36,625 bases of DNA, from NCBI GenBank assembly GCA_002085115.1, contig MZGQ01000012.1:1-36625 (forward strand). Reading direction: 5' to 3'. Of the stretch, positions 1,200-2,190 are shown one piece after another. The DNA is from Desulfococcus sp. 4484_241 (GTDB lineage: Bacteria; Desulfobacterota; Desulfobacteria; Desulfobacterales; Desulfosudaceae). The stretch's first letter is position 1. Every line of letters starts with the position of its first letter. The notes under the pieces were generated by a model. It was not told where the DNA came from, did no database searches, and saw nothing but the letters and a program-made list of their open reading frames with translations. Position numbers and translations under genes: made by a program.

Positions 1200-1261
1200 A
1201 CTGTTTTCGTATGGCAACTTGTGTGAATGATAATTTTTCAACCAATGCGAAAGGGACAGTC

Positions 1262-1423
1262 ATGGAAGAGATTCTGATTTTTTTTGCTGTTATTGCTGTC
1301 TACATCCTGCTGCAAACCGTTATTTTGCCGAAAATGGGAATATCCACCTGAATGCGAGACGCCTGCCAGGTGGCAGACAAACAGGCTGAAACATCCGGTA
1401 CCGATAATAAGCATAAGAAGTAG
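1262..1423 (+). CDS. Candidate 53-aa membrane selenoprotein (TGA at 1349-1351 read as Sec)
   Basis: The ATG at 1262 has a fair Shine-Dalgarno (AAAGGGA). The first 29 codons encode one membrane helix (LIFFAVIAVYILLQTVIL) followed by PKMGIST, then TGA. In the same frame reading continues 23 codons (MRDACQV..., ending NKHKK) to TAG at 1421-1423, only 20 nt before the ATG of the decayed copper ATPase. If TGA is selenocysteine the product reads STU-M-RDAC: a Sec and a Cys on a short hydrophilic tail after one transmembrane anchor. A hairpin placed as in bacterial SECIS elements follows (1363-1376). Seen: the frame, spacing and hairpin. Inferred: Sec insertion and a redox or metal-handling role. 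I do not recognise the family. The alternative is a 29-aa peptide, or a gene with a nonsense mutation beside a pseudogene. Confidence 0.45.
1363..1376 (+). promoter_or_regulatory. Putative bacterial SECIS-like hairpin
   Basis: CTGCC (1363-1367), loop AGGT (1368-1371), GGCAG (1372-1376) form a perfect 5-bp stem. The loop begins 16 nt after the TGA at 1349-1351. In the known E. coli fdhF SECIS the apical loop AGGUCU starts 17 nt after UGA, so position and loop letters are close. This is a structural resemblance only. Confidence 0.4.
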
Positions 1424-1443
1424 CAGCCGTGGAGACTGCGACA

Positions 1444-2190
1444 ATGACAACACCAATGCAATTACCGGCATGAGCTGCGCCAACTGCGCGGCCAACATCG
1501 AGCGTCTGTTGAACAAAAAAAAACCGCCGGCATCTCCAAAGTGACTGTTAATTTTGCAGCAGAGCGCCAACATGGACGTGCTTGTGGCAATGGGCTCGTC
1601 GGTGGCCCATGGATATTCTACTGTTCTTCCATTCTTCCCCGAATTGGGGAACCACACCCACTTCGAGACTTCAGCCGTTATCATAGTAAAAAAGGGGTCT
1701 GAGCACCCTGTCGGCAAGACGATCGTTGAAAGTGCGTACACCATGAAGATTCAACCGCTAAGAGCTGATAATATCATGGCTGTAAGCGGCATGAGGGCAA
1801 TGGCCGGCGTAGAGGACAGAATGGTCAGGGCCGGCAAACCTTCCTGGTTCAAGGGACTTGGAATGGATATGGGCGTGCTCGAAAAGGAGCTTAAAAAGAC
1901 TGACCTCAAGCGGTAAAACAGTAGTGGCGTATTTTCCGACGACCAGCCGGCTGGTTTAATAGGTTTGGCCGACACAGGTATAGCGATCGGCACCGGCACC
2001 GGCGTCGCCATAAAGGCAGCAGCAGGCATAGCCCTTTCATCCGGCAACCTGGGCTGCTGGTGTCCTGTACCCCTTTGCCTCTCTGCCCACGATAATGCGC
2101 CAGCTTCATCCCATGCCGGCGGCACTGGCAATGTCGGCCGGCAGCATATCTGTGGTAGGCAACAGCCTGAGACTTTACCGTAAAAGGTAG
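1444..2190 (+). pseudogene. copA: Decayed copper-type P1B ATPase (copA-like) gene
   Basis: Fragments of a heavy-metal P-type ATPase appear in the right order but in different frames. They are an N-terminal HMA domain with ITGMSCANCAANIERLL; a slip at an A9 run (1515-1523) restoring TAGISKVTVNF; then the membrane segment NMDVLVAMGSSVAHGYS; then KGSEHPVGKTIVESA of the nucleotide-binding domain; GLADT joined directly to GIAIGTGTGVAIKAA; and the C-terminal end AAGVLYPF...SISVVGNSLRLYRKR with a stop at 2188-2190. Large parts are missing, including the CPC metal site, the DKTGT phosphorylation site and the GDGINDAP hinge. The intact gene would be about 2.2-2.5 kb; 0.75 kb remains. It cannot encode a working pump. 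The ATG at 1444 follows the small ORF by 20 nt, so both were probably one operon. Confidence 0.85.

What the first reader, a model, noticed from the sequence alone, without database searches (positions are those of the whole stretch)
1262..1423. Candidate new small membrane selenoprotein upstream of a copper ATPase remnant
A 29-codon ORF with one membrane helix ends in TGA, but the same frame continues 23 codons to a TAG placed 20 nt before the next start codon. A 5-bp hairpin with loop AGGT begins its loop 16 nt after the TGA, closely matching the geometry and loop letters of the E. coli fdhF SECIS. The result would be ...GISTU-M-RDAC..., with Sec and Cys on a short tail after a membrane anchor, in the operon position of a metal-transport partner. 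Selenoproteins are frequent in Desulfobacterota. I do not recognise the family.
Basis: partly seen in the sequence, partly recalled or inferred. Interest (0 to 1): 0.68.

Follow-up and report, generated by a model that had tools for sequence, protein, structure and literature searches.

The report
New small membrane selenoprotein family
A tiny membrane protein (about 53 amino acids) that annotation would cut off at a false stop codon is almost certainly a real selenium-containing protein, belonging to a family present in over a hundred bacterial lineages that appears to have been overlooked because no relative with ordinary cysteine was found; its exact job is not yet known.

Summary
ORF 1262-1423 reads through a TGA (1349-1351), has a Shine-Dalgarno, one helix (residues 2-24) and a 5-bp AGGT hairpin 16 nt after the TGA. 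Relatives settle the interpretation. Homologues occur in 83/96 genomes of the order, about 170/395 of the phylum, and in named Acidobacteriota and Nitrospirota contigs. In 132 distinct members the same codon is always TGA, never TAA, TAG or a Cys codon, although only 9 of 32 long window ORFs end in TGA. The peptide after it is conserved (TU-M-x-x-[AS]-C, Cys at Sec+5 in 117/132). The hairpin shows compensatory change: the third base of the Cys codon and a base 7 nt downstream switch together (C-G or T-A). The genome has selA, Sec-containing selD and two tRNA-Sec genes; selB is missing from this 87%-complete assembly but present in its relatives. No Pfam, NCBIfam, PDB or published family (119 listed in a 2026 review) matches, and no Cys form was found, which may explain why it was missed. 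The copper link is weak: CopA is nearby in only 8 of 132 loci and is a decayed pseudogene here. Best functional guess: a membrane-anchored Sec/Cys redox protein with its tail in the cytoplasm (inferred).

The parts
1262..1423 (+). Small membrane selenoprotein gene, 53 aa with TGA read as Sec, stop TAG
   Evidence: Translation; homologues with TGA at the same codon in 83/96 order genomes and about 170/395 phylum genomes
1251..1256 (+). Shine-Dalgarno-like AAGGGA before the conserved ATG
   Evidence: Sequence; a purine-rich SD-like motif precedes 125/132 homologues
1265..1333 (+). Transmembrane helix (residues 2-24), ending in the conserved LPK
   Evidence: AlphaFold2 helix H2-24, pLDDT about 90; W/Y at Sec-16, Q/N at Sec-12, invariant P at Sec-7 and G at Sec-4
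1349..1351 (+). TGA read as selenocysteine (residue 30)
   Evidence: TGA in all 132 distinct members; no other codon found
1363..1376 (+). SECIS-like hairpin CTGCC-AGGT-GGCAG, loop 1368-1371, 16 nt after the TGA
   Evidence: Compensatory changes at two stem pairs among 66 relatives of this hairpin class, 97% of cells paired
1364..1366 (+). Cys35 codon (U-x4-C motif), also part of the hairpin stem
   Evidence: First Cys lies at Sec+5 in 117/132 members
1440..2190 (+). Decayed copper-transporting P-type ATPase (CopA) pseudogene; neighbour, not part of the system
   Evidence: tblastn of the CopA of relative G002: frameshift, in-frame stop, three internal deletions; NCBIfam fragments

Best explanation
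This is a genuine selenoprotein gene of an undescribed family. Shown by comparison: the UGA at codon 30 is a sense codon, read with the help of a short hairpin directly behind it, giving a 45-60 aa protein with one transmembrane helix, a conserved W...[QN]...LP[KR]xG[IV]xTU motif, a Cys usually five residues after Sec, and a short charged tail. Inferred: the tail is in the cytoplasm (positive-inside rule), so Sec sits a few residues from the inner face of the membrane, and Sec and Cys act together as a selenol/selenenylsulfide redox pair. The last step, a membrane-anchored redox effector or sensor of anaerobes, is my preferred guess at about 45%; the selenoprotein claim itself is about 95%.
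For: All 132 distinct members carry TGA (167 of 168 raw HMM hits, the exception a spurious 9-bit hit), from about 64 of 72 family-level lineages of the order and about 50 more in the phylum, although only 9 of 32 long window ORFs end in TGA. The peptide after TGA is conserved. Hairpin: the Cys codon third base versus a base 7 nt on pairs as C-G 37 or T-A 45, with T-G 6, C-A 0 (Fisher 7e-19, not corrected for relatedness); among 66 members of this hairpin class the pairs 15-28 and 18-25 (numbered from the T of TGA) are standard in 65/66 and 66/66 with both C-G and T-A types. The window itself (TGC/GCA) differs on both sides from its two family relatives (TGT/ACA). Folding energy is below the synonymous-recoding mean in 94% of members, and G is in the first two loop bases in 120/132. 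Own genome: selA, Sec-containing selD, two tRNA-Sec with anticodon TCA. Of 8 family-positive genomes without a selA hit, 7 have tRNA-Sec and the eighth hit is not a convincing member. Topology: 4.3 K/R versus 2.2 D/E after the helix, about neutral before it. Redox-type neighbours in some lineages: Hsp33, thioredoxin, DsbD-type membrane protein, ECF sigma factor with zinc-finger anti-sigma.
Against: No translation or 75Se data. selB is absent from the held 87%-complete assembly; it is present in both family relatives. The window hairpin alone is not unusually stable. No neighbour is conserved across the family, so the redox function is an inference. 15 of 132 members lack a Cys at exactly Sec+5, so a fixed Sec-Cys pair may not be essential.
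Confidence: 0.85

Rival explanations
1. The TGA is an ordinary stop; the gene makes a 29-aa membrane peptide and the downstream sequence is conserved for another reason, for example as an RNA element.
For: The helix alone is a plausible small protein, and the window hairpin alone is not statistically unusual.
Against: TAA and TAG never occur in 132 members; the amino acids after the TGA are conserved in frame with a Cys at Sec+5 in 117/132; genuine members sit in genomes with Sec machinery.
Confidence: 0.03
2. A real selenoprotein whose Sec and Cys bind a soft metal (Cu, Hg, Ni) at the membrane, acting as a chaperone or sensor for exporters such as CopA.
For: CopA lies next to the gene in all three genomes of the window's family (G000 decayed, G001, G002) and upstream in a few others; the 2026 review suggests metal-ligand roles for Sec in several other selenoproteins (PMC13188914).
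Against: CopA is near only 8 of 132 loci and its position varies; in the window CopA is destroyed while the selenoprotein is intact.
Confidence: 0.2
3. A small accessory subunit of a membrane enzyme complex encoded elsewhere, in which Sec is a cofactor ligand or an interprotein redox residue.
For: Near-invariant W/Y, Q/N, P and G in and after the helix suggest tight packing against a partner; no fixed operon partner; Tat-signal ferredoxin plus a 4-helix membrane protein are neighbours in 12-15 loci.
Against: No partner identified; the ferredoxin pair is confined to part of one order.
Confidence: 0.25
4. A redox switch for stress transcription: the membrane Sec/Cys tail oxidises or reduces the zinc-finger anti-sigma factor encoded downstream and so releases the ECF sigma factor.
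For: ECF sigma immediately downstream in 17 loci, zf-HC2 anti-sigma in 12, Hsp33 in 4 loci, all on the same strand.
Against: Absent from most loci; linkage may only reflect shared ancestry.
Confidence: 0.12

Closest known systems
Bacterial selenoproteins in general (119 families in PMC13188914, Table 1)
   Same: UGA read as Sec, hairpin right after the UGA with G in the first two loop bases and loop 16 nt or more downstream, Sec machinery in the genome
   Different: No listed family has this sequence or layout; most are thioredoxin-fold enzymes with UxxC or CxxU, and most have Cys forms, which this one lacks in everything searched
E. coli fdhF SECIS
   Same: From memory of the fdhF element: small apical loop with AGGU-like letters at a similar distance from UGA
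   Different: Shorter stem; other members of the family use different, GC-rich hairpins
Eukaryotic SELENOK / SELENOS (from general knowledge)
   Same: Layout: single-pass membrane protein with Sec on a short cytosolic C-terminal tail
   Different: No sequence relation tested or claimed; eukaryotic SECIS and membranes differ; likely convergent layout only
Hypothetical selenoprotein families DG, DW and DF (deep-Sep, PMC12013277)
   Same: Selenoproteins of unknown function reported from Desulfosarcina and Desulfosediminicola
   Different: Their NCBIfam models (NF049953, NF041197, NF049942) are named in the review; no NCBIfam model matched the 45 members scanned, and those families have Cys homologues

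Membership tests
Selenoprotein (UGA decoded as Sec) | In-frame UGA at a conserved position with conserved coding sequence after it | tested here: met
   132/132 members, tail conserved
Selenoprotein (UGA decoded as Sec) | bSECIS hairpin after the UGA, G in the first two loop bases, loop 16-37 nt from UGA | tested here: met
   Compensatory pairs; G in first two loop bases 120/132; most predicted loops 16-25 nt from the UGA; bSECISearch itself was not run
Selenoprotein (UGA decoded as Sec) | Sec machinery (selA, selB, selC, selD) in the genome | tested here: inconclusive
   selA, Sec-selD and two tRNA-Sec found; selB not in the 87%-complete assembly but present in family relatives G001 and G002
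Selenoprotein (UGA decoded as Sec) | Selenium in the protein | not testable with these tools
   Needs 75Se labelling or mass spectrometry
Selenoprotein (UGA decoded as Sec) | Cys-containing homologues (usual, not obligatory, so its absence does not exclude membership) | tested here: not met
   None among phylum genomes with or without Sec machinery, viral contigs or plasmids; most other phyla not searched in depth
Any Pfam, NCBIfam or PDB family | Profile match of the members | tested here: not met
   45 members: only scattered weak hits, best E 0.006, none consistent; PDB none
CopA-associated metal transport partner | Conserved linkage to CopA | tested here: not met
   8 of 132 loci; pseudogene in the window

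The most novel reading that the evidence does not exclude
An ancient, obligately selenium-dependent family of tiny inner-membrane proteins of anaerobes in which Sec cannot be replaced by Cys, acting as a membrane-tethered selenol switch or electron relay that controls stress transcription or a membrane respiratory complex.
Probability: 0.3. Interest if true: 0.88.

Novelty: new variant of a known kind. Interest (0 to 1): 0.75.

Why it matters
Selenoprotein searches rely largely on Cys homologues, and the deep-Sep authors say their method may fail on selenoproteins without them (PMC12013277). This family shows how large that blind spot may be: it is in nearly half of the sampled genomes of one phylum, yet absent from the lists and libraries consulted, and its genes would be cut to 29 aa or not called at all. 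A 45-60 aa single-helix protein with one apparently irreplaceable Sec is also among the simplest possible settings in which to ask what selenium does that sulfur cannot.

Tried and rejected
Ordinary stop codon: rejected (no TAA/TAG among 132 members). General recoding of TGA in this genome: rejected (9 of 32 ORFs of 200 or more residues in the window end in TGA). Metal-transport operon partner: weakened. Single-sequence folding as proof of the hairpin: failed for the window (z = 0.1), so not used as proof. Sliding the stem by -3 still pairs 87% of cells because of local repeats (CAG GTG G), but would leave a one-base loop; other slides give 28-41%. Cys homologues in viral contigs and plasmids: none. 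selB in the window genome: only EF-Tu-like and other GTPase hits. PDB search: nothing.

Full report
Observation. The sequence at 1262-1423 is as described: MEEILIFFAVIAVYILLQTVILPKMGISTUMRDACQVADKQAETSGTDNKHKK*, with TGA at 1349-1351 and TAG at 1421-1423, an SD-like AAGGGA at 1251-1256, and a hairpin CTGCC-AGGT-GGCAG at 1363-1376 whose loop begins 16 nt after the TGA. The following ATG at 1444 opens only nine codons and is out of frame with the CopA remnant, so that detail carries no weight.

Homologues. A protein search of 96 genomes (same order) found the family in 83 of them, and the matches carried the TGA. With a 23-sequence profile, 170 of 395 genomes drawn evenly from the phylum matched at E <= 0.01; two of the weakest of these matches (G167, G388) are probably chance. 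By my count of the labels this is about 64 of the 72 family-level groups in the order sample and about 50 further ones in the phylum. A pattern scan of named genome contigs gave Desulfococcaceae, Desulfobacterium, Desulforapulum autotrophicum and Desulfobacteraceae, and also Nitrospirota, Nitrospira and Acidobacteriota contigs; the Nitrospirota and Acidobacteriota ones lie in metagenome-assembled genomes.

Recoding. Among fetched loci, 167 of 168 HMM hits have TGA at the Sec column; the exception is a 9-bit spurious hit. Reduced to 132 distinct sequences, P at Sec-7 and G at Sec-4 are invariant, T at Sec-1 is 127/132, W or Y at Sec-16 132/132, Q or N at Sec-12 131/132, and the first Cys is at Sec+5 in 117/132. 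The peptide after the TGA is conserved, and tails end at an in-frame stop after 13-38 residues (median 23). TGA ends only 9 of the 32 window ORFs of at least 200 residues that have a stop, so universal TGA in so many lineages is not a stop-codon preference.

SECIS. In the order, the hairpin core is TG[CT]-C-AGKT-G-[GA]CA. The third base of the Cys codon (synonymous) and the first base of the Ala/Thr codon seven bases later are linked: C-G 37, T-A 45, T-G 6, C-A 0 (Fisher 7e-19, inflated by relatedness). Among the 66 sequences of this class, pair 18-25 (numbered from the T of TGA) is T-A 43, C-G 22, T-G 1 and pair 15-28 is C-G 45, T-A 15, T-G 4, G-C 1, C-C 1. The window (TGC/GCA) differs by both sides of the pair from its two family relatives (TGT/ACA). 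More distant members carry other, often GC-rich hairpins in the same place. Against synonymous recodings the folding energy is lower than the mean in 94% of 132 members (mean z -1.46), and G is in the first two loop bases in 120/132. The review's bSECIS rule is G in the first two loop positions and 16-37 nt from UGA (PMC13188914). For the window alone the energy test is not significant.

Machinery. G000 has selA over the curated cut-off, selD with its own in-frame TGA (SGUAGK) and two tRNA-Sec genes with anticodon TCA. selB was not found in this 87%-complete assembly but is present in both family relatives. In the phylum sample selA is over its cut-off in 355 of 395 genomes. Comparing the printed lists, the family is in 162 of the 355 with selA and 8 of the 40 without; 7 of those 8 have tRNA-Sec, and the eighth hit (G388, L191) is not a convincing member. 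No convincing Cys form turned up in the genomes without selA, in viral contigs or in plasmids.

Structure and topology. AlphaFold2 predicts one helix (2-24, pLDDT about 90) and a low-confidence tail. Positive charge lies after the helix (4.3 K/R against 2.2 D/E), while the four N-terminal residues are about neutral; by the positive-inside rule the Sec tail faces the cytoplasm. That is an inference.

Neighbourhood. Among 132 loci there is no universal partner; the downstream gene is on the same strand in only about half (67 of 128). Recurrent same-strand neighbours within part of the order: an ECF sigma factor directly downstream (17 loci) and a zf-HC2 anti-sigma (12), a Tat-signal 4Fe-4S protein (15) with a four-helix membrane protein (12) upstream. 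MobB (12), FmdB-type zinc ribbon (8), CopA (8), thioredoxin (5), Hsp33 (4) and a DsbD-type membrane protein (4, opposite strand) also occur. The theme is redox rather than metal export, but no background rate was measured. In the window CopA is a pseudogene with a frameshift and large deletions, whereas it is intact next to the gene in G001 and G002; the selenoprotein gene has outlived it.

Known or new. None of the 119 families in the 2026 review's table fits by name or motif. 45 diverse members gave no consistent match in NCBIfam release 20 or Pfam and none in the PDB. The literature library is open-access only, so a report in a closed paper cannot be excluded. The authors of deep-Sep state that selenoproteins without Cys homologues may not be identified by their method, which fits this family being overlooked.

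Mechanism. Shown by comparative sequence: sense UGA with a SECIS-like hairpin. Inferred: inner-membrane anchor with Sec near the cytoplasmic face; Sec with the Cys five residues on as a selenol/selenenylsulfide pair. Guess: a redox effector or sensor (about 45%), ahead of an enzyme-complex subunit, a metal ligand and an ECF-linked switch. These overlap, so the rival confidences do not sum to one.

Noticed in passing
window 1440-2190: CopA pseudogene: collinear fragments with a frameshift, an in-frame stop and large internal deletions; CopA is intact at the same place in the two family relatives G001 and G002.
   Followed up: yes
L040 and L041 (G000 contigs C61 and C71): Two different tRNA-Sec genes (anticodon TCA) in the window's genome; G100 and G132 also have two.
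   Followed up: partly
G000 whole genome: selB not found although selA, Sec-containing selD and tRNA-Sec are present; probably assembly incompleteness.
   Followed up: partly
G094:C62:29023-29382 and G040:C244:4657-5010: Tandem duplicates of the selenoprotein gene about 225 bp apart, both copies with TGA.
   Followed up: no
upstream of the gene in 12 loci, e.g. L026: A conserved four-helix membrane protein (about 160 aa, ...FAQMPIFKRYYIADIPGLGWLA...) with no Pfam match, next to a Tat-signal 4Fe-4S protein.
   Followed up: partly
downstream in 9 loci, e.g. L081: Conserved 143-aa Cys-containing protein without a Pfam match directly behind the selenoprotein gene.
   Followed up: no
L183-L188: Divergent members with other Sec contexts (GIRGUGVGPSDRC, GLPSUGAPVDAGR, GIHLGUGANADSC), suggesting the family is wider than the profile used.
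   Followed up: partly
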